Part shown: positions 20,798-31,515 of the stretch, in pieces | Layout of the letters: each line of letters begins with the position of its first letter | Numbering within the stretch: the first letter of the stretch is position 1 | Virus record (IMG/VR): IMGVR_UViG_3300011013_000048 | Location: 1 to 33,789 of that record | DNA from: a virus | Direction: 5' to 3' (one strand) | DNA: 33,789 bases | The notes under the pieces: generated by a model | Seen by the model: only the letters and a program-made list of their open reading frames with translations | The model's database searches: none | Told to the model about the DNA's origin: nothing | Made by a program: the position numbers and the translations under genes

Positions 20798-22717
20798 TTA
20801 TACCTGCATTTTGCCACTACCATCCCCTATACTACGTTGCCATGGTTTATCTGTAAATACCGTTTTTGCCGATCCCCAGTCTTCCCCATATTCAATATCC
20901 ACCTTAGACGGAACTGCTAACTCTACACAGTTTTCCATAATATCAGCAATTTCTCGTATTTGATCAGGGTCACTAGCAGAAAAACACAATTCATCATGGA
21001 CTTGGAGCAAAGGAATAAAATTCTTTTTGAAAAGTTGGCTCATCGCGGCCTTTGTTTGATCAGCGGCAGATCCTTGGATCAATCGATTAAGAGCTTTATG
21101 GGTAAATGCTCGTTTGATACTGGCCCCGTATTCTGCGGATGCTTTTTCAAAGGTAGAAATTTTCCCAATTCCAAATTGCCTTGGTTCCCATAAATCAAAG
21201 CGACACTTCCTCCCTAGTATTGTTCGTATAAACCCTTTACTAGAAGCGCGGTTTCTACAGTAGTCACTTAACATTTTTACAAAAGGAACTTTACGATGGT
21301 ACTGCTGGAAAAGATCTTTGGCTTCTTCCAGTGGTATATTCAATTGAGAAGCGAGCTTCTTTTCACCCATTGAATAAAACAAACCTAGATTAATATCTTT
21401 TGCTTGTCGTCTTGGAATAGAAGCCATTTCAGCAACGATAGAATGGAAATCTGCTTCCCCCTCTTTATAGGCTTCAACAACTGCGTCGACTTCTGGCAGT
21501 TCCAAGAGCGAAGCATAATGAACGACAAGCCTTGGCTCTTGTTGAGAATAGTCTATAGAAACCCACTTTTCACCTTTTTCCGGTACAAAGATGGAACGGA
21601 TCAGGGGGCCAAGAATCTTATGACGAGCAGGAATTTGCTGGAGGTTAGGGTTGCTGTAACTAAAACGTCCAGATACAGTACCTCCGGAATCAGATCGTAG
21701 AGGGTGTATATCCCCATGGATTCTTCCATCATGTTGATATCTCATAATTGAATTGATAAAAGTTGTGTTGGCTTTGTTATATTCTCGGGCTTCTAAAATA
21801 AGACGAGGTAATTCATGGGGATGATCTTGCAAAAAAGCTCTATCAATTTTGGGTGCTTTTGTTTTTTCTGTACGTTCGTAGGGTATTTTTGCTTTATCAA
21901 ATAATCCACCAATAGATCTGGAATTCCATATCTCAACTTCATACCCATATTCTTTTTTAATTTTCCGAAAAATTTTGCGCTCACGTTTTTCCAAATCTAT
22001 TTGAATTTTGTCAGCTTTTTCTAGATCAACCCGTACTCCTTGCCATCGCATTTCTAACAAGAGGGGTAACAGAGATAATTCTAAATCTAAAACAAAATTG
22101 AGATCAGTTTTAAGGATTTCAGTTTTAAGAGCTTTCCATAAATCTAAAGTTGCTCTAGCATCTTGTTCCGCATACGGGCCTACATACATAGAGGGGAGTT
22201 TCCACATTTCCCCTTTAGCATCTACCCCCCATTCTTTTGCTGCTTCTCGTAGTAACTTTTCATCTTTTGAAGAGGCTAGGTAAGTTTTGGCTAAAGCATT
22301 AAGTGCGTAAGAAAAGCGATTTTCATCAAGGAGAGGGGCAGCTATTAAAGTATCTTTAATGGCCCCTTTAACTGGGACTCCTTCTCGTTTAAGCCATCCT
22401 AAATCATAAAGAGCATTATGGAATACTTTATCCGATTCTGTGGATAATTGATCTTTCAGCCAATTTAAGATTAAAGTGGCATCTAGGTTACTTCCATTAT
22501 CATGTCGTATAGGGAAATAGCCAGCCCACCCATCAACTGCTACAGATACGCCAATAACATAGCCATTGCCTGTTGCCCACCCAGACCCTTTGGTTCGAAG
22601 GTCCGGATCACATGTTTCTAAATCTATGGCAATTACTTTAGCGTCTTTTAGATTTGGTAGTGTTTCTGGAGGACACCATGGGCTTTCTGTTTGGAGCAGC
22701 GGAATTTGATAGGCCAC
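20798..22717 (-). CDS. polA: DNA polymerase I family (family A) with proofreading domain
   Basis: The 639-residue enzyme replicates the phage genome. The 3'-5' exonuclease motifs are VIAIDLETCD (Asp32, Glu34), FHNALYDLGWL (Asp105) and YAEQDARATLDLW (Tyr182, Asp186). The polymerase motifs are SGRFSYSNPNLQQIPAR, motif A WVSIDYSQQEPR (Asp389), motif B PRRQAKDINLGLFYSMG (Lys440, Tyr448) and motif C LLQVHDELCFS (His574, Asp575, Glu576). There is no 5' nuclease domain, as usual for phage. Leu444 stands where E. coli has Phe762, a change noted in phage polymerases and proposed to relate to lifestyle. The preceding small gene overlaps its start by 80 bases. Confidence 0.95.
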   Translation of the reverse strand: MAYQIPLLQTESPWCPPETLPNLKDAKVIAIDLETCDPDLRTKGSGWATGNGYVIGVSVAVDGWAGYFPIRHDNGSNLDATLILNWLKDQLSTESDKVFHNALYDLGWLKREGVPVKGAIKDTLIAAPLLDENRFSYALNALAKTYLASSKDEKLLREAAKEWGVDAKGEMWKLPSMYVGPYAEQDARATLDLWKALKTEILKTDLNFVLDLELSLLPLLLEMRWQGVRVDLEKADKIQIDLEKRERKIFRKIKKEYGYEVEIWNSRSIGGLFDKAKIPYERTEKTKAPKIDRAFLQDHPHELPRLILEAREYNKANTTFINSIMRYQHDGRIHGDIHPLRSDSGGTVSGRFSYSNPNLQQIPARHKILGPLIRSIFVPEKGEKWVSIDYSQQEPRLVVHYASLLELPEVDAVVEAYKEGEADFHSIVAEMASIPRRQAKDINLGLFYSMGEKKLASQLNIPLEEAKDLFQQYHRKVPFVKMLSDYCRNRASSKGFIRTILGRKCRFDLWEPRQFGIGKISTFEKASAEYGASIKRAFTHKALNRLIQGSAADQTKAAMSQLFKKNFIPLLQVHDELCFSASDPDQIREIADIMENCVELAVPSKVDIEYGEDWGSAKTVFTDKPWQRSIGDGSGKMQV

Positions 22718-22848: not shown

Positions 22849-23280
22849 TTATACGACCCGTAATGAAGGGTCGCTCTGATTAATGTCTTCCTCACATCCG
22901 TCGCTAGGGGGTCCACCGCTATTTCCTAGGGTATTTCCTTCTAAAAACTGAAAGGCCTCCTGAGACTCGTCCGTAGGAGCATGCAGGCTATAACCGCCTA
23001 GCTCAGCCCTCATTTCAGCTTCAACTAGGAATAAATATCGCCTTAAATCCCCAATATCATCCAATATTCCTGTTGGGGATGGGTCTTCATAAATTGTATT
23101 GAAAATATCGTACTGAAATTTCTTAACTTGATTTTCTATACGGTCCCACTTACGGGCCAGCATCATAAATGCACCCATACCACCACGTTTCTTCCAGCTA
23201 TTCCCATAGCTCTTTTCGGCATTAACCAATGCTTCTACATCATAGGAAGCAACCTCTTCTATAGCTTCTTTGATTCCCAT
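22849..23280 (-). CDS. DUF1599-like nucleotide-modification-associated protein
   Basis: In this 143-residue protein, residues 20-92 hold AEKSYGNSWKKRGGMGAFMMLARKWDRIENQV and GILDDIGDLRRYLFLVEAEM. This is the pattern of the DUF1599 family, which I recall being named for its link to nucleotide modification in phages. The helical layout and paired acidic residues recall MazG-type all-alpha NTP pyrophosphatases, so it may clean the nucleotide pool of the unmodified dNTP. The last 50 residues are polar and probably disordered. It follows the thymidylate-synthase-like gene and overlaps it by about 22 bases, which supports a shared role. Confidence 0.75.
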   Translation of the reverse strand: MGIKEAIEEVASYDVEALVNAEKSYGNSWKKRGGMGAFMMLARKWDRIENQVKKFQYDIFNTIYEDPSPTGILDDIGDLRRYLFLVEAEMRAELGGYSLHAPTDESQEAFQFLEGNTLGNSGGPPSDGCEEDINQSDPSLRVV

Positions 23281-24317
23281 TTACTTGCTCTCCTCTCCAA
23301 CCATTCTATACTAGCCTTTCTCCAATCTAAAGCCTCTATTTCTTTAGCGGTCGAAATAGCATCTTTATATTCTCTATGGATTTGTCCCATGTGCCAAGCC
23401 AAAAACATTTTATGCGCAGTCTTTGAAAAAAACCTATTCGTATACTCCGGAGGTGCCGGTGGAAAACTAACGGAATGCCCCATAAAAGTTCGAGTATATC
23501 CTAAAAAATTCTCTATATCCACATCGGCTTGGTTTCTATCTTCAAAAATAGGTGCAGGGGTATAATGCAATCCATCAGGGTTTAACCCTACATAAGAATC
23601 ATACCATAAATAATCATGTTCATGTCTTTCAAGAATAGGTAGCATTTTATGGAAGGGTTCTTCATAAGCATGGTAACTGTCACTGACATGATAATAGTCC
23701 CCTACTTCAATTCCAATTTGAGAAGCTATGTATTCTTGAAGAATTGAGAAGTGCACAGCATTTGCCCCATATGTGCCCCAGATAATATCGTTAGAGCGGC
23801 AAAGAACAGTCATGTTTAATTTGTTGTTCTTTCTTTTAAAATAAATATGAGTATTACAAGGAACATCTTTGTAGTCTTCTATAGCCCTTTTTAGATCTTC
23901 AGAATCCCACATAGTTACTACTGCTCGTCTACTATTTGGATCTTCTATTAAATGTGAAACGGCAAGGTCTAGCTGATCGCTGTGAAAATACTTACGCCAT
24001 CGATACCCATAGGCCCCGTTTAATCTCCACCCGTCATCTGAGTATTCCATCATTCGTTTATTAAAGAATCTTACATAATCAACATCTTCCTGCCCACCTA
24101 ACATCCAAAGGGCTTCAAACAAATGGAAGAAAGGATTTGCATCTCTTGTTGGACTGAATAGCACCCGTTCCTTGGGGCAAAGATATTTAGTAGTGACAGG
24201 ATGGGGATACTCCAATACTCTTCCAGTACGAGTCTCGTGCCAAACCCCACTTGCCTTTAAATGTTCTAGCCCAAGGTATAAGGCCTCCGTGACATTTCTT
24301 GCTTGGATAGTTAACAT
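23259..24317 (-). CDS. Thymidylate synthase family enzyme, possible dUMP hydroxymethylase
   Basis: This 352-residue enzyme carries the family features: VTTK (41-44), DDGWRLNGAYGYRWR (94-108), catalytic Cys154 in DVPCNTHI, RSND (174-177), HFSILQEYIASQIG and SYHAY (214-218). Thymidylate synthase makes dTMP from dUMP; phage relatives instead make 5-hydroxymethyl-dUMP or -dCMP for modified DNA. The usual GLPFN motif is replaced by GTYGAN (181-186), which shifts or removes the Asn that reads the pyrimidine. The C-terminus (RRASKWESKKL) does not look like the usual closing tail. I infer a hydroxymethylase or other 5-substituting enzyme, given its neighbours; ordinary dTMP synthesis cannot be ruled out. 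ATG follows the upstream stop with no gap. Confidence 0.8.
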   Translation of the reverse strand: MLTIQARNVTEALYLGLEHLKASGVWHETRTGRVLEYPHPVTTKYLCPKERVLFSPTRDANPFFHLFEALWMLGGQEDVDYVRFFNKRMMEYSDDGWRLNGAYGYRWRKYFHSDQLDLAVSHLIEDPNSRRAVVTMWDSEDLKRAIEDYKDVPCNTHIYFKRKNNKLNMTVLCRSNDIIWGTYGANAVHFSILQEYIASQIGIEVGDYYHVSDSYHAYEEPFHKMLPILERHEHDYLWYDSYVGLNPDGLHYTPAPIFEDRNQADVDIENFLGYTRTFMGHSVSFPPAPPEYTNRFFSKTAHKMFLAWHMGQIHREYKDAISTAKEIEALDWRKASIEWLERRASKWESKKL

Positions 24318-25319
24318 TTATTTCTCCCACGGTCGAGGTACTGCTCGAGTGTATGGCCCATTACTTAATGCAGCTTGAATGATTAAATCATCCTTTTCGT
24401 CCGGTTTTTCTAAATCTAATTGTCCCTGAGGATCCGGTAATAATCCTGGGCGGTAACTAAGTGCGTCACAACCGTCACATGGACCGAAATCTCGCATCCC
24501 ATGGTACAATTTTTTCCGTGCTGCATTAAATGGGTCGCTTTGCCAAATCTCTTCAAACGTAGTTTCTTGCTCCAAAATATTACCACATTGGTAATGTCCT
24601 GGCCAATCATTGCAACAGATTGCAACACTACCATCCCATCTTACAGACAGTTCTCTAAAAACTTTTGCACACCTCTTTCCCGCCGCTCGATCATTTTTGG
24701 GGAAAGCCGCTCCAGCATGATTGTTTAAAGTAGAGTGGTTTCCTTTAGTGGCTTGAGCTATATCTTGTACTACTACAATATCATGGTCCCCAGGTTTTCT
24801 ACGGCGATGAGGATTAGCCTTTTTAGTGGAAGGATACTCAAGGATTTTATGGAAGCCTTTGTATTGTTCCCGAACTTTATCACAAATCTTTATACCTTCA
24901 TAGTTATCCAATAAAAGTACGTTGATTCCTGCTTCCATTAAGTCATTAATATTTTTTGTTAAGTCACCTTTTAACAAGCCCACCCCATTTGATGTCATCT
25001 GAAGATGCGTTTTAGGTAATTGCTTTCTAAATAATTGAACAATGTCTTTAAAATTGGGATTCATTGTTGGTTCTCCATGCATAGCCATTTCTATGCGAGG
25101 ATTCCATTTATTAGAGCGAATAGCTTGTGCCAATTTACTGACTAAAGTATGGGCATGTGCATAATTTAAATACTTGTAAGGGTCTGATTTTTTACCCCGT
25201 TTATCTTTAGGACCATTCGCTCCATTTTTACGAATAGAAGCAATACCACAAAAGGCACAAGCTAAGTTGCACCCTTCTGTTAATTCAATTTGAACACAGT
25301 ATGGAGGATTCTGTTTCAT
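24318..25319 (-). CDS. Radical SAM enzyme with SPASM domain
   Basis: In this 333-residue protein, Cys17, Cys21 and Cys24 (EGCNLACAFC) form the CxxxCxxC site for the iron-sulfur cluster that splits S-adenosylmethionine. MAMHGEPTMNPNF resembles the GGEP strand that binds SAM, with AMHGEP in place of GGEP. From about residue 218 a SPASM-like part follows: RCAKVFRELSVRWDGSVAICCNDW, GNI, FEEIW and FGPCDGCD, with enough cysteines for one or two more clusters. SPASM enzymes usually alter peptides, but some act on small molecules or sugars. In this cassette it could make a carbon bond or rearrange the substituent on a base. The start overlaps the glycosyltransferase stop (TAATG). Confidence 0.85.
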   Translation of the reverse strand: MKQNPPYCVQIELTEGCNLACAFCGIASIRKNGANGPKDKRGKKSDPYKYLNYAHAHTLVSKLAQAIRSNKWNPRIEMAMHGEPTMNPNFKDIVQLFRKQLPKTHLQMTSNGVGLLKGDLTKNINDLMEAGINVLLLDNYEGIKICDKVREQYKGFHKILEYPSTKKANPHRRRKPGDHDIVVVQDIAQATKGNHSTLNNHAGAAFPKNDRAAGKRCAKVFRELSVRWDGSVAICCNDWPGHYQCGNILEQETTFEEIWQSDPFNAARKKLYHGMRDFGPCDGCDALSYRPGLLPDPQGQLDLEKPDEKDDLIIQAALSNGPYTRAVPRPWEK

Positions 25320-26359
25320 TATTGCACCAGTTTCCTGTATTCAAGCCCAATTCGAATTGCGTCATGAGCATCTAAAAGTTTCATAGCATTAACGCGAATA
25401 AACATAGCCATATACTCTGTTATTTTCCCATTCAAGAAATTAGCAAAAGATTCCCAGTCTTCAAAAGTAATACAATTTTGCTCACTTCCTTCGTCTACCA
25501 TACTATCATCAGGGCGTATCCAATCTCTATGCAATAAACAAATAGTCCCTGCATCTATAGCTTCTAGAAAAGTATATTGAGTTCCACCGCCATCCCCTTG
25601 TATTACAGAAAAGTCCGTCATATATTTAGCATTTTTGCATAGAGCCAATGCTCCCCTGAAGTCTAGCTTAAAAATAGCCCGATCTTCTACTGCGCGGTTA
25701 CTATCCTGTAGATATTCAGGGTACTTAGGAACAATTTTAGTTTTTGTATACATCCGATTTTCCGCGCCCCTGATCAATATTTGTTTGCTAGGGGGCAATA
25801 CTCTATTTGCCTCAAACAACCAATGGCTGTTTTTATCAAAATCCAATCTAGCAATATTAATTGCATAGTTTTCTCTGTTCATCCAATCACTATAATCCAA
25901 TGGATCAACAGTTCGCGCAGCCATATAAGGATGGGGAATAAAAGTTGCCTCAGGCATATGCTCGAGCATAGAACGCCTAATGACAATAACTTGCGCAGGA
26001 TCAATAAACTTTTTAAACTCAGGATTCCGTAGCTCAGTAGGATCATGTATAACAATAAAAGCCCCTTGATCTAAGAGTTTCATTGCCAGCTTACGGTGGT
26101 GCTTATCAAGAGCCGTTATAAGAAGTGGGCCTTCTAATTCTAGAACATCTTCTTCTTTTACATTGCGATAGGGAACCATATTTCCCATTTCTCTATAAAC
26201 TTTTTCAGTGCGTGTTGTTACACGAATCACTTCATGTTGATCAGATTCTGCAAAACGATCCCCCGCAAAAGGGGGCTTTCCTAAAAGCCCATGGTAAAGA
26301 TGACTGGTAAAAGTAACCCAACCTCCATACCTACTCCTGGATAAATATAGCAGCCGCAT
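25319..26359 (-). CDS. GT-B fold glycosyltransferase
   Basis: This 346-residue protein begins MRLLYLSRSRYGGWVTFTSHLYHGL, like the first strand and glycine loop of GT-B enzymes. The mid-chain AINIARLDFDKNSHWLFEANRVLP matches the vgRl-x-x-dKg-x-x-x-ll-x-A pattern that opens the donor domain. VIQGDGGGTQYTFLEAIDAG matches the donor-binding segment with its E-A-x-x-x-G core. It should pass a sugar from an activated donor. Donor and acceptor are not told by sequence. Between a nucleotidyltransferase and a radical SAM gene in a cassette with base-modification families, the acceptor may be a modified base in DNA. Surface glycan or protein are alternatives. It overlaps its upstream neighbour by 29 bases. 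Confidence 0.75.
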   Translation of the reverse strand: MRLLYLSRSRYGGWVTFTSHLYHGLLGKPPFAGDRFAESDQHEVIRVTTRTEKVYREMGNMVPYRNVKEEDVLELEGPLLITALDKHHRKLAMKLLDQGAFIVIHDPTELRNPEFKKFIDPAQVIVIRRSMLEHMPEATFIPHPYMAARTVDPLDYSDWMNRENYAINIARLDFDKNSHWLFEANRVLPPSKQILIRGAENRMYTKTKIVPKYPEYLQDSNRAVEDRAIFKLDFRGALALCKNAKYMTDFSVIQGDGGGTQYTFLEAIDAGTICLLHRDWIRPDDSMVDEGSEQNCITFEDWESFANFLNGKITEYMAMFIRVNAMKLLDAHDAIRIGLEYRKLVQ

Positions 26360-27290
26360 CGTAATCCACCCTTTCTATATCACTCTCACTCAATTCTTCT
26401 CCTAGCCATGCTTCTATAATAATAAGTTGCTCAGATGAAGAAGTATTATGAAGCCAATGATATTCTTTCTTTGCTATTTCTACAACAGAACCAACTCGTA
26501 ATGGTTTTAGTTTCTTATGAAGGAACACTTCATTAACCCAAACTTTACCCTCCCCTTGTACCACAATCCACCTTTCTTCTCGTTTAAAATGACGTTGTAA
26601 ACTTAACGCTCGACCAGGATTGATTCGTAGTATTTTTGCTCGCCATTTTTGGCCCTGTTCAAGAACTTCATATTCTCCCCATGTTCGAATAGTAGTTGAA
26701 CCAGTTGAGGAATTGTAGGTTTCAAGAAGTTCACTTGACGAAGCCTGTTTCCCCCCGCCAACATTCCAAATGAGTTTGATATTATTTTCTTCGCAATAAG
26801 CTCTCTCAGGAGTACTTTTTGAAGTTCTGTCCCCACCGTTTAAGAAGGCGATCTTTGAGTGAGTGTACCTTTCTTGAACATACCTTAATCCATTAACCAC
26901 CGTTCCATCTCTATCAGCGACAGGGGAGACCGCATGGACAGAAGAAAATTCAGAAATAATTTCAGCCCGTGTATCATAATCTAAAAAAGCTCGACCTTTT
27001 TTCCTCTTTAGCCAATCATTACTATTAAGAAGAACATGGACTTTCCCAATAGTAGCAGCTTCCCTTATTAATGCAATATGACCAGCATGGATAGGGTCAA
27101 AACCCCCACTCACAACAGCCACAGTACCACCCCATGGTACAATTTTTTCCTTATATTGTTTGTATTTATTATTACTTTTCATTTCCCTAAGTCGTTTCAT
27201 TTGATCAACAATATAAGAGTCCCAATCTTCTCCGTGTAAAGCTCCTTTATACGGACGGATAGTATTTCGATCTTGGTTGTCCTTGCCCAT
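26331..27290 (-). CDS. HIGH-motif nucleotidyltransferase fused to a cupin
   Basis: I start at ATG 27290 (MGKDNQDRNTIRPYKG) behind AGGG, giving 319 residues; the frame runs on to 27362 inside the upstream gene. Residues 55-195 form a cytidylyltransferase-like domain: SGGFDPIHAGH (61-71), NGGDR (151-155) and ASSSELL (183-189), as in RfaE-C and similar enzymes that activate phosphorylated compounds with CTP or ATP. From residue 204, WGEYEVLEQG, SLQRHFKREERWIVVQGEG and YHWLHNTSSSEQLIIIEAW form a cupin like the C-terminal part of type II mannose-6-phosphate isomerase/GDP-mannose pyrophosphorylase. The order copies that enzyme but with an unrelated nucleotidyltransferase. It probably makes the sugar donor for the next gene. 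Confidence 0.8.
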   Translation of the reverse strand: MGKDNQDRNTIRPYKGALHGEDWDSYIVDQMKRLREMKSNNKYKQYKEKIVPWGGTVAVVSGGFDPIHAGHIALIREAATIGKVHVLLNSNDWLKRKKGRAFLDYDTRAEIISEFSSVHAVSPVADRDGTVVNGLRYVQERYTHSKIAFLNGGDRTSKSTPERAYCEENNIKLIWNVGGGKQASSSELLETYNSSTGSTTIRTWGEYEVLEQGQKWRAKILRINPGRALSLQRHFKREERWIVVQGEGKVWVNEVFLHKKLKPLRVGSVVEIAKKEYHWLHNTSSSEQLIIIEAWLGEELSESDIERVDYDAAAIFIQE

Positions 27291-28092
27291 TTCGAACCCT
27301 TTCATATTTATCGAATTCGCAAAGGCTATGCTCAATATCTCGAAGTTCCAAAGTGCCCACACCTTTCTCGAGATAAAGATCAGATATATCTAAAAGTTTA
27401 CGCATCTCAGAACACCAATCATGTCGCTTTGAAACGTAGGTCAGTTCTCTACCAAAAATTCTATTTAGTCCTCGCATAGCCCCTGGACCCGCATTAGCCC
27501 ATGTATTTATATCAAGAGCCTCATCACCAATGCAAGTATGTCGCAAATCAGTAACAATTTCGTAGGCTAGGAATGGGCCTAAAAATGGATACCCCTCTAA
27601 AAAGTAACACATTTTTTCTAAAGATGCCCAAGGGGTTTTCCTTAGGAAATGTGCCCTTCCCTCCCAAACGGTACTAATAGTTTGACAAACACCTTTTACT
27701 TTATTTCTTCCAGTGGGACTTTTAATCATATACGCCCCTGTTATCCATTTATCTTGGGGGATAATAGCCTCGTATGCTTTTTGGGGATCCCAATCTACAT
27801 GTAAATTATGGCGTAGTAATGTCTCGCCCGTTTCAATTAAATTGAACCATCGGAAAATAACAGTGGCCATATAAACGTCATGGCTATCTTTTAAGGGATC
27901 CCGAATATTTTCTCGGAACCAAACAGTAGTCTTGTCTTTTTCACGGAAAGCATTAGTGAATTTAAATTCACGCAGAATTTTGTCTTCTGTCCAAGGCCAA
28001 GGTTGCCCTGCATCTTTTTTAACTTGGATGCTTGTTCTCTCATTTATCCAGCTAAAAAACTTTTCTACAAACTCATCTCTTTCTTCTAGCAT
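27247..28092 (-). CDS. HMUDK_hel / aGPT-Pplase family DNA base hypermodification protein
   Basis: I start at ATG 28092 (MLEERDEFVEKFF) behind GAAAGGAAAGGG, giving 281 residues; a TTG at 28125 lies upstream. Motifs in order: FFSWINERTSI, GQPWPWTEDKIL (29-40), FKFTNAFREKDKTT (43-56), VIFRWFN, TGAYMIKSPTGRNK, FLGPFLAYEIVTDLRH and the late block INTWANAGPGAMRGLNRIFGR. This is the pattern I know from phage proteins annotated as 5-hmdU DNA kinase helical domain or alpha-glutamyl/putrescinyl thymine pyrophosphorylase. Such proteins act after hydroxymethyl-uracil is in DNA, activating it so that a larger group can be attached. The helix-hairpin-like GPFLAYE and the Asp-rich end recall DNA glycosylases. 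It heads the modification cassette. Confidence 0.82.
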   Translation of the reverse strand: MLEERDEFVEKFFSWINERTSIQVKKDAGQPWPWTEDKILREFKFTNAFREKDKTTVWFRENIRDPLKDSHDVYMATVIFRWFNLIETGETLLRHNLHVDWDPQKAYEAIIPQDKWITGAYMIKSPTGRNKVKGVCQTISTVWEGRAHFLRKTPWASLEKMCYFLEGYPFLGPFLAYEIVTDLRHTCIGDEALDINTWANAGPGAMRGLNRIFGRELTYVSKRHDWCSEMRKLLDISDLYLEKGVGTLELRDIEHSLCEFDKYERVRNGQGQPRSKYYPSV

Positions 28093-28111
28093 CCCTTTCC
28101 TTTCTAGGGTT

Positions 28112-28146
28112 GTGGGGGATCCCAAAGCATATTAAGAATCCCCCAC
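28112..28146. promoter_or_regulatory. Stem-loop before the modification cassette
   Basis: GTGGGGGAT (28112-28120) pairs perfectly with ATCCCCCAC (28138-28146) around a 17-base loop. It sits 20 bases before the first cassette start codon. No T-run follows on the minus strand. It could be a processing site, a partial terminator or an mRNA stabiliser that sets cassette expression apart from the helicase genes upstream. Confidence 0.5.
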
Positions 28147-28519: not shown

Positions 28520-30013
28520 TCAAATAAGGAAAGCTCGAGAAGTTAGGGGTTGCACAATATGCAGGTTTTCTTTTACACGGGTTAATGCTACATAGAATAC
28601 CCGTATCTCATCATCAGGTTCTTTTTGCATTTGTATCCAACTTTTCTGCCCTATATCCGTTAACACTACCACATTATCACACTCACTCCCCTTGGCTCCA
28701 TGAATCGTTGATAATCGGATGCGGGGTTCTGTGGTAAACTTTTCTCCCCTACGCAAACAAGCAATCAAATATTGTTTTTCTTTATCTGAAACCTTATCAA
28801 AAGCCTCATGCCAAATAGCCGTAGTTAATAAACCATAAGACTCTAGTAATTTTTGTAGAGTAACTTGCTCTTCATCAAAGACAGCTTTGAGCGTTTTATG
28901 GGTTCGGCTAACTCCTTTGTTTGAATTCATATATTTATAAATACTTCTTACTTGGGCAATAGTAACCACCCCACCTTTGCGAAGTCGCTCCCAAGCTAAT
29001 ATTGCATTAAGTAAGGTTTCCGATACACTTTTCCTGTGACCTCGCTGATAAAAGAACCCTTCAAGTCGACACTGTTGTTCAACACTATTCAACATATAAT
29101 TATTTCGGGCAAGAACAAGCCAGTTACCTTCACGCATATCAATATGTTCAACTTCTGAATGCCAAAATAGCTTGCCTTCTTTTGGCCTTGGTTTCCAGAA
29201 CTTAGTTCGACGTTTAGAAACTCTTTTAACAATAGAATCAGCTAAGTAATGGGCATGTTGGGGAACTCGGTAGGATTGATCTAAAACTTGGATATCCCCC
29301 TCTAATGATAAGAAATGGTTTACATCAGCCCCCGCCCACCTGAAAATAGCTTGGTCATCATCCCCAGCAATATAGACATGTTTAGCTTTATTTTGAAGTT
29401 TAGAGACAAGTTGCCATTGTAAAAAACTTAGATCTTGAGCCTCGTCTATGAAAACTACATCAAGATCAGGGGCAAGGTCTTGGTCTACAAATAGGGAGAG
29501 CATATCAGTGAAGTCATAAAGGTGGCGCTCCCGTTTAAAAGCATTTAGCCCCCGTTCTGCTCTATCTATTTCATACCAATTAATATCCAAATTATCATCT
29601 AACCATTGCTTATGAGTAGTTACTCCTCGGACTCGAGCAACTTCTATTGTTCCCAAAATTTGATCACCCTTCTTAGAAAAAGCAAGTGACCCTTCTTCTA
29701 AAGAACTGTACCCCCTCACCTCTAAGCCCATGAGTTGGCCAAATTCCCTACGCTGTTCATCATTTAAAACTTGTGACCGACTTAACCCTAGTCGTTGAAA
29801 AGCCAAACTATGAAGAGTCCGAAAGAAAGGTAGGTCATCACCTCCAAGGTTGAACTTATTGTACGCTCTTTCTCTAGCCTCGTCTGAAGCTCGGTTAGTG
29901 AACGCAAAATACCCTATCTTATGAGGTGGAATCCCTTTTTCAATATGGTCTTCCACTAAAGAAAGTAGGGTAGAAGTTTTACCTGTTCCTGGGGGGCCAA
30001 TGATAATATTCAA
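28520..30013 (-). CDS. UvrD/PcrA-like SF1 DNA helicase
   Basis: This 497-residue ATP-driven helicase translocates on single-stranded DNA. Motif I is GPPGTGKT (6-13), motif Ia AFTNRASDEARERA, motif II VVFIDEAQDLS (187-196), motif III AGDDDQAIFRWAGA (216-229), motif IV QSYRVPQHAHYLA, motif V RLSTIHGAKGSECDNVVV and motif VI VFYVALTRVKENL. It is shorter than bacterial UvrD (about 720), with reduced 1B and 2B insertions, as in phage versions such as T4 Dda-like enzymes. It overlaps the primase-like gene by 4 bases and precedes the modification cassette. Confidence 0.92.
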   Translation of the reverse strand: MNIIIGPPGTGKTSTLLSLVEDHIEKGIPPHKIGYFAFTNRASDEARERAYNKFNLGGDDLPFFRTLHSLAFQRLGLSRSQVLNDEQRREFGQLMGLEVRGYSSLEEGSLAFSKKGDQILGTIEVARVRGVTTHKQWLDDNLDINWYEIDRAERGLNAFKRERHLYDFTDMLSLFVDQDLAPDLDVVFIDEAQDLSFLQWQLVSKLQNKAKHVYIAGDDDQAIFRWAGADVNHFLSLEGDIQVLDQSYRVPQHAHYLADSIVKRVSKRRTKFWKPRPKEGKLFWHSEVEHIDMREGNWLVLARNNYMLNSVEQQCRLEGFFYQRGHRKSVSETLLNAILAWERLRKGGVVTIAQVRSIYKYMNSNKGVSRTHKTLKAVFDEEQVTLQKLLESYGLLTTAIWHEAFDKVSDKEKQYLIACLRRGEKFTTEPRIRLSTIHGAKGSECDNVVVLTDIGQKSWIQMQKEPDDEIRVFYVALTRVKENLHIVQPLTSRAFLI

Positions 30014-31515
30014 ATTATATCTTCTTTAAAGTCAGGTAAATCAAAGGGGTCAGATTGTACACTAAAGGCGGGAAGACCCCAAAGGTTAACAAATCTACCC
30101 TTGATATTAACCCCTTGATGCACAGCACTCATGTCCCTCAACCTAGCGGTTATTTTAGGACGAGGAAAGTAACGGAAGTTATGTCGTTGAAGATACGCCT
30201 CAAGATCAGATAATCTGAAAAAGGTTTTCCCTTCTTCAGTGTACGGTTTACCAAGTAAAATCTCTTCCCTAGTTTGGGCTTGTGCCCGATCAGTGCAAAA
30301 AGACTCAACGAGATCACTGAACTGCCCCTCAATAGACGCATCCGGTGGTACATCAATTAGAGTGACATTGTCTAGTAGGTTTTGGATAACCCCTTGCCAT
30401 GCTCGCTCACTCATTTTAGGGGGCATCTTATTGATAGCTTCCATACAAACACGCTGAAATCGAGTTTGATTTTGCAAATCTTCTGTTGACATTTCCAACC
30501 TATTAGCTTCCACATCTAGAAACCACACGGGTGGGTTGGAATTTTGTTTGGTTAAAGAACCAAAGGTAGGCATTGCCGTGGCAGGAGAAATACCAAACTT
30601 GCGTGTTTTACATATTCCCGAATTACAATGACTAGCAATAGGTTGGTCATTACATTTATAGTTGTATTCTTTTGTACGAAGTTGTTTGATAATAGTTAGA
30701 ACTTCATTTGCCGCAAGAGGGGGAGAAAGATACTCTCGGTTATATTCCTCTATTCGAGTTTCCCAATTATCAGGTTCTGATAACTTTGCATAAATCCCTA
30801 AATTAAATAGGCCATTATTACGAGTGCCTAAAGGAAATCCTTCAGTTATGAGGTGCTGTAAGCAAGGTGGGCCATTATTTAATGATTTAACCTCACTTTT
30901 AATTTTAAGATTAGTAAGGTCTTCAGGAGTCAAAGCAAAGGTATCAGCTAAGTCTAAGAATTGTTCAAGGGTATTCACCTTCCCTTCTGCGTTTAATGAA
31001 TAGCGGGTAGTTTGGTCTCCTCCGAAATAAGGCAGGTTTAAGAAGTTACCCGTATCCCCCCGTTCGGTTAGAATATGCGTTTGTTTAGGGAATATTTCGT
31101 GGGAGGCCAGCCCTAGTTTAGCCGCAATTTCGACTAACTTTAGCCTCATGGTAGCCGCAGCAATATAGTCAGTAGTGAATATGAAAATATGTGCCCCCCC
31201 TGATTTACTACGGCAAGTAACCAAGGGGAGCTGATATTTGTAAACTTCAGAATTGAGTACTTTTAGATCGACTGAAAAGTCATCTACATCAATACACCCC
31301 CAACGACAGCTATTCTCATCTGTGATAGGAATTATACCAAGGGAAGGCTCTTCACCTTCAAGATGCTTTTCCCAAAGATCTTCGGTAGGCTCACCCCGTT
31401 GTACTCGGGATTCTACCTTTTTCTTGCCATCTTCCCGTAAGCCTATGATAGTTGTTGTACCATAGGCGCGGTGTAGCCCTGAAAATCTTTGTATAAATCT
31501 TTCTAAATTACTCAT
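30010..31515 (-). CDS. AEP-superfamily primase-like protein
   Basis: In this 501-residue protein the N-terminal part carries SLGIIPITDENSCRWGCIDVDDF with an acidic triad-like DVD (76-78) and CRSKSGGAHIFIF (101-113), as in archaeo-eukaryotic primase / primase-polymerase domains of phages and plasmids. Later, PPLAANEVLTIIKQL and CNDQPIASHCNSGICKTRKFG (about 277-297) look like a PriCT-type helix and a zinc site of three or four cysteines and a histidine. A C-terminal part of 180 residues has no motif I know. It would start DNA synthesis for the polymerase. No helicase domain is fused, but UvrD-like and SNF2-like helicases are encoded beside it. Confidence 0.8.
   Translation of the reverse strand: MSNLERFIQRFSGLHRAYGTTTIIGLREDGKKKVESRVQRGEPTEDLWEKHLEGEEPSLGIIPITDENSCRWGCIDVDDFSVDLKVLNSEVYKYQLPLVTCRSKSGGAHIFIFTTDYIAAATMRLKLVEIAAKLGLASHEIFPKQTHILTERGDTGNFLNLPYFGGDQTTRYSLNAEGKVNTLEQFLDLADTFALTPEDLTNLKIKSEVKSLNNGPPCLQHLITEGFPLGTRNNGLFNLGIYAKLSEPDNWETRIEEYNREYLSPPLAANEVLTIIKQLRTKEYNYKCNDQPIASHCNSGICKTRKFGISPATAMPTFGSLTKQNSNPPVWFLDVEANRLEMSTEDLQNQTRFQRVCMEAINKMPPKMSERAWQGVIQNLLDNVTLIDVPPDASIEGQFSDLVESFCTDRAQAQTREEILLGKPYTEEGKTFFRLSDLEAYLQRHNFRYFPRPKITARLRDMSAVHQGVNIKGRFVNLWGLPAFSVQSDPFDLPDFKEDII

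What the first reader, a model, noticed from the sequence alone, without database searches (positions are those of the whole stretch)
22849..28092. Candidate DNA-base hypermodification cassette of a new make-up
Six tightly coupled genes encode, in order, an HMUDK_hel/aGPT-Pplase protein, a HIGH-type nucleotidyltransferase-cupin, a GT-B glycosyltransferase, a radical SAM/SPASM enzyme, a thymidylate-synthase-family enzyme and a DUF1599-like protein, directly before the DNA polymerase. Seen: the motifs and the overlaps. Known: the first family acts on 5-hydroxymethyluracil in phage DNA, and phage TS relatives make 5-hydroxymethyl pyrimidines. Inferred: the phage carries a substituted, perhaps glycosylated, pyrimidine, with the radical SAM enzyme shaping the side group. 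I do not know a described pathway with this set; no separate P-loop 5-hmdU kinase is seen.
Basis: partly seen in the sequence, partly recalled or inferred. Interest (0 to 1): 0.88.

Follow-up and report, generated by a model that had tools for sequence, protein, structure and literature searches.

The report
Phage thymine glycosylation and radical-SAM cassette
A marine virus of bacteria carries a gene set that very probably makes hydroxymethylated thymine, attaches a sugar to it in the viral DNA and then reshapes that sugar with a radical enzyme, a branch of DNA armouring for which I found no description in the literature I could search.

Summary
The six genes are real, co-directional and tightly packed beside PolA; five of six family calls hold. 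'DUF1599' has no Pfam support and follows the phage backbone, not the modification. TS plus aG/PT-PPlase1 beside PolA is published for HTVC023P-type pelagiphages (PMC9599517); I found no description of the added GT-B and radical SAM genes. The TS is dUMP-type (Asn177) with Asn147 as in phage M6, so 5-hmdU is the likely base. The M6-type kinase and amino-acid transferase are absent here and in near-complete relatives; glycosyltransferases take their place. Of 36 non-redundant radical-SAM loci with ample flanks, 33 hold HMUDK_hel, TS and a GT, none a kinase. The window's GT family lies beside either HMUDK_hel+TS (14 loci) or a TET/JBP oxygenase (14), two routes to 5-hydroxymethyl pyrimidine. The radical SAM twitch domain matches BtrN, an aminocyclitol dehydrogenase. 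Best reading: glycosylated 5-hmdU, further sculpted by the radical SAM enzyme. No chemistry is shown. Cultured phage LuckyBarnes carries a kinase-free TS-GT-GT-HMUDK_hel set.

The parts
27247..28125 (-). HMUDK_hel (PF18723; aG/PT-PPlase1), HhH DNA-glycosylase-like protein; likely ATG start at 28092; proposed to bind DNA and present 5-hmdU
   Evidence: Pfam 5.6e-46; AlphaFold pLDDT 94.5, nearest structures PaMx11 gp46 glycinyltransferase Z 11.0 and HhH DNA glycosylases
26331..27362 (-). Nucleotidyltransferase (HIGH type) fused to a MannoseP_isomer-type cupin (ATG candidates at 27305 and 27290); proposed to make the activated sugar; accessory
   Evidence: CTP_transf_like 3.9e-9, MannoseP_isomer 2.4e-19; whole in L004 and L007, cupin only in L005, absent in L003 and L006
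25319..26359 (-). GT-B glycosyltransferase; proposed DNA 5-hydroxymethylpyrimidine glycosyltransferase
   Evidence: GT-B fold, best structural match T4 DNA alpha-glucosyltransferase, tied with other GT4 enzymes; family found beside HMUDK_hel+TS or TET/JBP
24318..25319 (-). Radical SAM enzyme with SPASM/twitch domain; proposed to modify the attached sugar
   Evidence: Pfam SPASM 2.7e-11, Radical_SAM 1.7e-8; CX3CX2C and four twitch Cys invariant; profile matches BtrN only
23259..24317 (-). Thymidylate-synthase-family enzyme, predicted dUMP 5-hydroxymethylase
   Evidence: phrog_5131 3e-103; Cys146, Asn147, Asn177 as in M6 gp58
22849..23280 (-). Small conserved protein without a Pfam family; backbone gene, probably not part of the modification pathway
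   Evidence: No Pfam DUF1599 hit in 19 members; presence follows the UvrD/primase backbone, not the modification type
20798..22717 (-). Family A DNA polymerase next to the cassette (context; would have to use 5-hm-dUTP)
   Evidence: DNA_pol_A 1.2e-63
28520..31515 (-). UvrD-like helicase and archaeo-eukaryotic-type primase upstream (backbone context)
   Evidence: UvrD-helicase 4.9e-28, AEP-TOTE 2.9e-12

Best explanation
A thymidine hypermodification cassette whose middle step is glycosylation instead of phosphorylation. The TS homologue converts dUMP to 5-hydroxymethyl-dUMP, which the phage polymerase incorporates as 5-hmdU. HMUDK_hel, a DNA-glycosylase-like HhH protein, binds the DNA and presents the 5-hmdU base. 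The GT-B enzyme transfers a sugar to the 5-hydroxymethyl oxygen, using a host donor or one made by the NT-cupin protein. The radical SAM/twitch enzyme then modifies that sugar, most likely as a BtrN-like alcohol dehydrogenase. The product would shield virion DNA from restriction nucleases and from glycosylases that excise 5-hmU. Shown here: gene content, families, residues, predicted folds, recurrent linkage. Inferred: every reaction, their order, the sugar, the role of HMUDK_hel. My confidence is about 0.8 for glycosylated 5-hmdU, 0.5 for the radical SAM enzyme acting on the sugar and 0.5 for the HMUDK_hel role.
For: TS family: Asn177 (dUMP type) in 146 of 146 and Asn147 in 145 of 146 cassette TS sequences, as in M6. 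33 of 36 well-flanked non-redundant radical SAM loci have HMUDK_hel, TS and a GT; none a kinase. Gene order differs between lineages while membership stays. In other loci the GT slot holds TAGT, the family of T-even DNA glucosyltransferases. The window's GT family sits next to TET/JBP oxygenases in 14 loci and to HMUDK_hel+TS in 14. GT model best matches T4 DNA alpha-glucosyltransferase, tied with other GT4 folds. HMUDK_hel model is HhH-glycosylase-like and nearest to PaMx11 gp46, an enzyme of 5-hmdU-derived bases. Radical SAM profile matches BtrN. PF18748 and PF18724 absent in the window and near-complete relatives.
Against: No biochemistry. The GT model is of middling confidence (pLDDT 66) and T4 AGT is tied with non-DNA GT4 enzymes. 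The BtrN match covers the twitch domain only. Six HMUDK_hel loci have both a kinase homologue and a GT, so glycosylation need not exclude phosphorylation. Many HMUDK_hel loci have a methyltransferase and no GT, so HMUDK_hel itself does not imply glycosylation.
Confidence: 0.68

Rival explanations
1. Same cassette, but the radical SAM enzyme acts on the base or its 5-substituent (as the radical SAM enzyme of M6/ViI acts on an amino-acid-derived group) before or instead of sugar modification, and the GT caps that product.
For: M6-like phages also carry a radical SAM gene in their cassette; many HMUDK_hel loci have a GT without this radical SAM, so the sugar alone is a sufficient end product.
Against: The M6 radical SAM protein is a different family; the window's family co-occurs with a GT in nearly every well-flanked locus and its twitch domain matches BtrN, an aminocyclitol dehydrogenase.
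Confidence: 0.15
2. HMUDK_hel works with an unrecognised or host kinase, so a phosphorylated 5-hmdU (or a sugar phosphate) is an intermediate, as in the six loci with both a kinase homologue and a GT.
For: Kinase homologues occur beside GT and radical SAM genes in L365, L366, L355, L301, L375 and L316; the family is named after the 5-hmdU kinase.
Against: No PF18748 match in the window or in near-complete relatives; ADDT, the step that uses the phosphate, never co-occurs with a GT.
Confidence: 0.1
3. The GT, NT-cupin and radical SAM genes modify a host or virion surface glycan and only happen to lie between HMUDK_hel and TS.
For: The NT and cupin domains resemble nucleotide-sugar and mannose enzymes of glycan pathways; the GT has no sequence-level match to a DNA GT.
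Against: The GT and radical SAM families recur with HMUDK_hel+TS or TET/JBP in shuffled order across backbones; the same slot holds T4-type DNA GTs elsewhere; only three hits came from 84,980 cellular species, and the one read is phage-like with the same partners.
Confidence: 0.03

Closest known systems
M6/ViI-type thymidine hypermodification (PMC9476957, PMC6449724)
   Same: Pyrimidine hydroxymethylase of the TS family, HMUDK_hel (aGPT-Pplase1), a radical SAM gene, location beside PolA
   Different: No 5-hmdU kinase (PF18748), no amino acid:DNA transferase (PF18724), no PLP enzyme; radical SAM of another family; a glycosyltransferase instead
HTVC023P-type pelagiphage TS + aG/PT-PPlase1 pair (PMC9599517)
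   Same: Same backbone type, TS and aG/PT-PPlase1 beside PolA; a putative glucosyltransferase nearby in some of those phages
   Different: The paper does not mention a radical SAM gene (0 occurrences); GT-B family, NT-cupin and radical SAM are additional here
T-even 5-hmC glucosylation (T4 AGT; TAGT of T6-like phages, PMC13390438)
   Same: TS-family hydroxymethylase plus DNA glycosyltransferase; GT model matches T4 AGT best and TAGT fills the slot in relatives
   Different: dUMP-type (Asn177) instead of dCMP-type hydroxymethylase; HMUDK_hel and radical SAM added
TET/JBP-GT phage gene clusters (base-J-like logic)
   Same: Same GT family, and in five loci the same radical SAM family, beside a TET/JBP oxygenase
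   Different: Hydroxymethyl group made in DNA by TET/JBP rather than in the nucleotide pool by a TS homologue
Yersinia phage YerA41 (PMC9023294)
   Same: Thymidine carrying a large substituent of apparent oligosaccharide character
   Different: No HMUDK_hel found in its genome; pathway unknown

Membership tests
M6/ViI-type thymidine hypermodification | dUMP hydroxymethylase of the TS family | tested here: met
   Cys146, Asn147, Asn177 as in M6 gp58; activity itself not tested
M6/ViI-type thymidine hypermodification | HMUDK_hel / aG/PT-PPlase1 | tested here: met
   PF18723 5.6e-46
M6/ViI-type thymidine hypermodification | P-loop 5-hmdU DNA kinase (PF18748) | tested here: not met
   No match in the window or in 52.7 and 56.5 kb relatives; found in M6 by the same search. 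The model is weak on distant kinases (three below cut-off).
M6/ViI-type thymidine hypermodification | Amino acid:DNA transferase (PF18724) | tested here: not met
   Absent in window and HTVC023P-type relatives, present in M6 and five others
5-hydroxymethylpyrimidine DNA glycosylation | Glycosyltransferase tied to a hydroxymethylating enzyme | tested here: met
   GT-B fold; family beside HMUDK_hel+TS or TET/JBP in 28 of 32 loci
5-hydroxymethylpyrimidine DNA glycosylation | Sugar on the bases of virion DNA | not testable with these tools
   Needs LC-MS
Radical SAM with SPASM/twitch domain | CX3CX2C and auxiliary-cluster cysteines | tested here: met
   C17, C21, C24 and C217, C235, C281, C284 invariant in nine homologues
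BtrN-like sugar/cyclitol dehydrogenase | Homology over the whole protein | tested here: inconclusive
   Only the twitch domain matches (2.5e-8)
DUF1599 | Match to the Pfam model | tested here: not met
   No DUF1599 hit at E<=1 for 19 members

The most novel reading that the evidence does not exclude
HMUDK_hel is not a kinase domain but a general HhH base-presenting module for 5-hmdU in DNA that phages pair with interchangeable chemistry (kinase+ADDT, glycosyltransferase or methyltransferase), and the radical SAM enzyme here is a sugar-modifying enzyme that works on DNA-linked glycosides, whether the hydroxymethyl group comes from a TS-type or a TET/JBP-type enzyme.
Probability: 0.35. Interest if true: 0.87.

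Novelty: new variant of a known kind. Interest (0 to 1): 0.74.

Why it matters
[quoted passage not shown] This cassette, recurrent in dozens of viral contigs, predicts phages with glycosylated, further tailored thymine and lists candidate enzymes: DNA-base glycosyltransferases of at least two folds, a radical SAM enzyme for DNA-linked sugars, and HMUDK_hel as a portable 5-hmdU module. Such enzymes could be tools for labelling 5-hmU, and the modification would help explain how abundant marine phages evade restriction and base-excision nucleases. The cultured phage LuckyBarnes makes the central glycosylation claim testable now.

Tried and rejected
Surface-glycan origin: rejected, because the GT and radical SAM families follow HMUDK_hel/TS or TET/JBP, and cellular genomes gave only three hits. 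'No kinase because the contig is cut': disfavoured by near-complete relatives. Strict kinase/GT exclusivity, first seen in 80 loci, did not survive a larger sample: six loci have both; what holds is that ADDT never co-occurs with a GT or the MT279 methyltransferase. DUF1599 label: rejected. Sequence search of the GT-B profile against PDB: nothing at E<=0.1. Sequence search of HMUDK_hel against PDB: nothing meaningful. YerA41 as a ready example: no HMUDK_hel found. Key papers known to me (Iyer 2013, Lee 2018 and Lee 2022, and, from memory, the PaMx11 gp46 structure paper) are not held, so I could not check whether they list a GT-radical SAM cluster; a literature search on radical SAM, DNA hypermodification, glycosyltransferase and phage gave nothing matching.
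Full report
Observation. The window (a 33.8 kb virus record) carries on its minus strand, in transcription order: HMUDK_hel (27247-28125), nucleotidyltransferase-cupin (26331-27362), GT-B (25319-26359), radical SAM/SPASM (24318-25319), a thymidylate-synthase-family enzyme (23259-24317), a small conserved protein (22849-23280) and PolA (20798-22717), overlapping or abutting down to the small protein. Pfam and PHROGs support the first, second, fourth and fifth. The third has no family hit; its predicted model (pLDDT 66) is a GT-B fold (Foldseek E 7e-6), and among Foldseek's candidates VIA-align ranks T4 DNA alpha-glucosyltransferase complexes first (Z 15.6, rmsd 4.6, 298 residues), tied with other GT4 enzymes. 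The sixth is not DUF1599 by Pfam. The backbone resembles Pelagibacter phage HTVC023P (64% DNA identity in the polymerase gene) and, more distantly, Pseudomonas phage M6.

What is already known. TS plus aG/PT-PPlase1 (the HMUDK_hel protein) beside PolA is described for HTVC023P-type pelagiphages of clades V, VIII and IX, with a putative glucosyltransferase nearby in some phages (PMC9599517). In M6-like phages the set is pyrimidine hydroxymethylase, Nmad5, aGPT-Pplase1, nucleotide kinase, radical SAM, PLP enzyme and aGPT-Pplase2 (PMC9476957); 5-hmdU in DNA is phosphorylated by a kinase and then substituted (PMC6449724). In Pfam terms M6 gp54 is the kinase PF18748, gp51 the transferase PF18724 and gp55 HMUDK_hel.

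What is different here. Neither PF18748 nor PF18724 is found in the window, in relatives of 52.7 and 56.5 kb, or in the other HTVC023P-backbone records searched; M6 and five further records have both. Relatives L003-L007 keep hel-(NT-cupin)-GT-radical SAM-TS, followed by the small protein and PolA where the contig reaches. NT-cupin is whole in L004 and L007, cupin only in L005 and absent from L003 and L006, so it is accessory.

Survey of the radical SAM family. In viral contigs 91 relatives were found, the best 80 kept. With near-copies removed (95% identity) 56 remained; of 36 with at least 6 kb on both sides, 33 have HMUDK_hel, TS and a glycosyltransferase within 8 kb, and none a kinase or ADDT homologue. 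Gene order varies (hel-GT-rSAM-TS, hel-rSAM-GT-TS, rSAM-GT-hel-TS, GT-rSAM-hel-TS), which argues for function rather than shared descent of one block. A scan of contigs from 84,980 cellular species gave three hits. I read one (L207), a phage-like contig with radical SAM, GT-like, hel and TS genes; L208 was not read and L209 is a weak match. That scan relies on two short peptide patterns, so it is not exhaustive.

Survey of HMUDK_hel. From several scans, 81 loci below 90% identity with at least 4 kb flanks: 79 with TS; 35 with a class I methyltransferase (MT279) and no GT; 30 with a GT and no kinase homologue; 9 with kinase and ADDT; 6 with kinase homologue and GT; 1 with none. ADDT never co-occurs with a GT or MT279. 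On a quick tree of 117 HMUDK_hel proteins these states need at least 19 changes, GT+radical SAM 14, so partners seem to have been exchanged repeatedly; support is SH-aLRT only. The scans return best matches, so these are not frequencies in nature. HMUDK_hel keeps 38 invariant columns across the kinase, GT and MT groups. Its model (pLDDT 94.5) is nearest to PaMx11 gp46, a glycinyltransferase on phosphomethyl-dU DNA (Z 11.0, 215 residues), then to HhH DNA glycosylases; for a helical protein such a Z is suggestive, not proof.

Which glycosyltransferases. The GT slot is filled by TAGT proteins (PF20691 8.6e-24 and 1.1e-12; homologous at about 25% identity to T-even beta-glucosyl-HMC-alpha-glucosyltransferases), by the window's GT-B family, by a Glycos_transf_1 protein (with an FkbM methyltransferase), or by a fourth family whose GT assignment is weak (Pfam 0.025). 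Outside hel loci, the window's GT family follows a TET/JBP oxygenase gene, mostly with a 4-nt overlap: of 32 loci (not deduplicated) 14 have hel+TS, 14 have TET/JBP, none both, 4 neither. TET/JBP enzymes also make 5-hydroxymethyl pyrimidines (established for the family), so two unrelated hydroxymethylation routes are coupled to one GT family. In five radical SAM loci without hel a TET/JBP gene lies within about 2.5 kb.

Substrate. In 146 cassette TS sequences Cys146 and Asn177 are invariant and Asn147 nearly so (145), as in M6; E. coli TS has His147/Asn177 and the CMP hydroxymethylase MilA Thr/Asp. Asn177 marks dUMP, Asp marks dCMP (PMC8670742). So the pathway starts from dUMP, and the Asn147 shared with M6 argues for hydroxymethylation (inference).

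Radical SAM step. CX3CX2C and a four-Cys twitch site are invariant; the only PDB matches of the profile are BtrN structures, through the twitch domain (2.5e-8). BtrN oxidises an alcohol of an aminocyclitol (established knowledge). Action on the attached sugar is therefore the preferred inference; substrate and timing are open.

Cultured test case. Brevibacterium phage LuckyBarnes carries TS (Asn147, Asn177), two TAGT genes and HMUDK_hel in a row. PF18748 and PF18724 do not ring in its 50.8 kb record; the same models do ring in M6. The radical SAM family has no relative in it by tblastn, so it tests the glycosylation step only.

Verdict. It is a new variant of thymidine hypermodification: a glycosyl branch plus a radical SAM add-on. 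Not shown: any reaction, the sugar, the role of HMUDK_hel.

Noticed in passing
L008:7171-8010, L011, L015, L022 and many further loci: The commonest HMUDK_hel+TS cassette in the sample has neither kinase nor GT but a class I SAM methyltransferase (MT279) directly upstream of HMUDK_hel; it could O-methylate 5-hmdU to 5-methoxymethyl-dU.
   Followed up: partly
L197:1234-4285, also L184, L196, L205: A TET/JBP oxygenase directly followed by the window's GT family, beside terminase genes (ParB-TET-GT where the upstream gene was identified, L197): a separate candidate DNA glycosylation operon.
   Followed up: partly
L160:7964-10883: GT-radical SAM-TET/JBP in a row: the radical SAM family also joins the TET/JBP route.
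   Followed up: no
L033:8935-11269: HMUDK_hel, FkbM methyltransferase, GT of the Glycos_transf_1 family and TS together; suggests an O-methylated sugar on 5-hmdU.
   Followed up: no
L365, L366, L355, L375, L301, L316: Loci with a kinase homologue together with a GT (four of them also with the radical SAM family): a mixed branch that the simple kinase-or-GT picture does not explain.
   Followed up: partly
L427 (NC_047851.1, Brevibacterium phage LuckyBarnes): Cultured phage with TS, two TAGT glycosyltransferases and an HMUDK_hel protein annotated as hypothetical.
   Followed up: yes
window 30010-31515 (-): Replication primase of the archaeo-eukaryotic (AEP-TOTE) type next to a UvrD-like helicase.
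   Followed up: no
window 22849-23280 (-): Highly conserved small protein family (EKSYGDSWKKRGGxGAFMMLARKWDRIENQ...DDIxDLRRYL) without a Pfam family, usually just before PolA on this backbone.
   Followed up: partly
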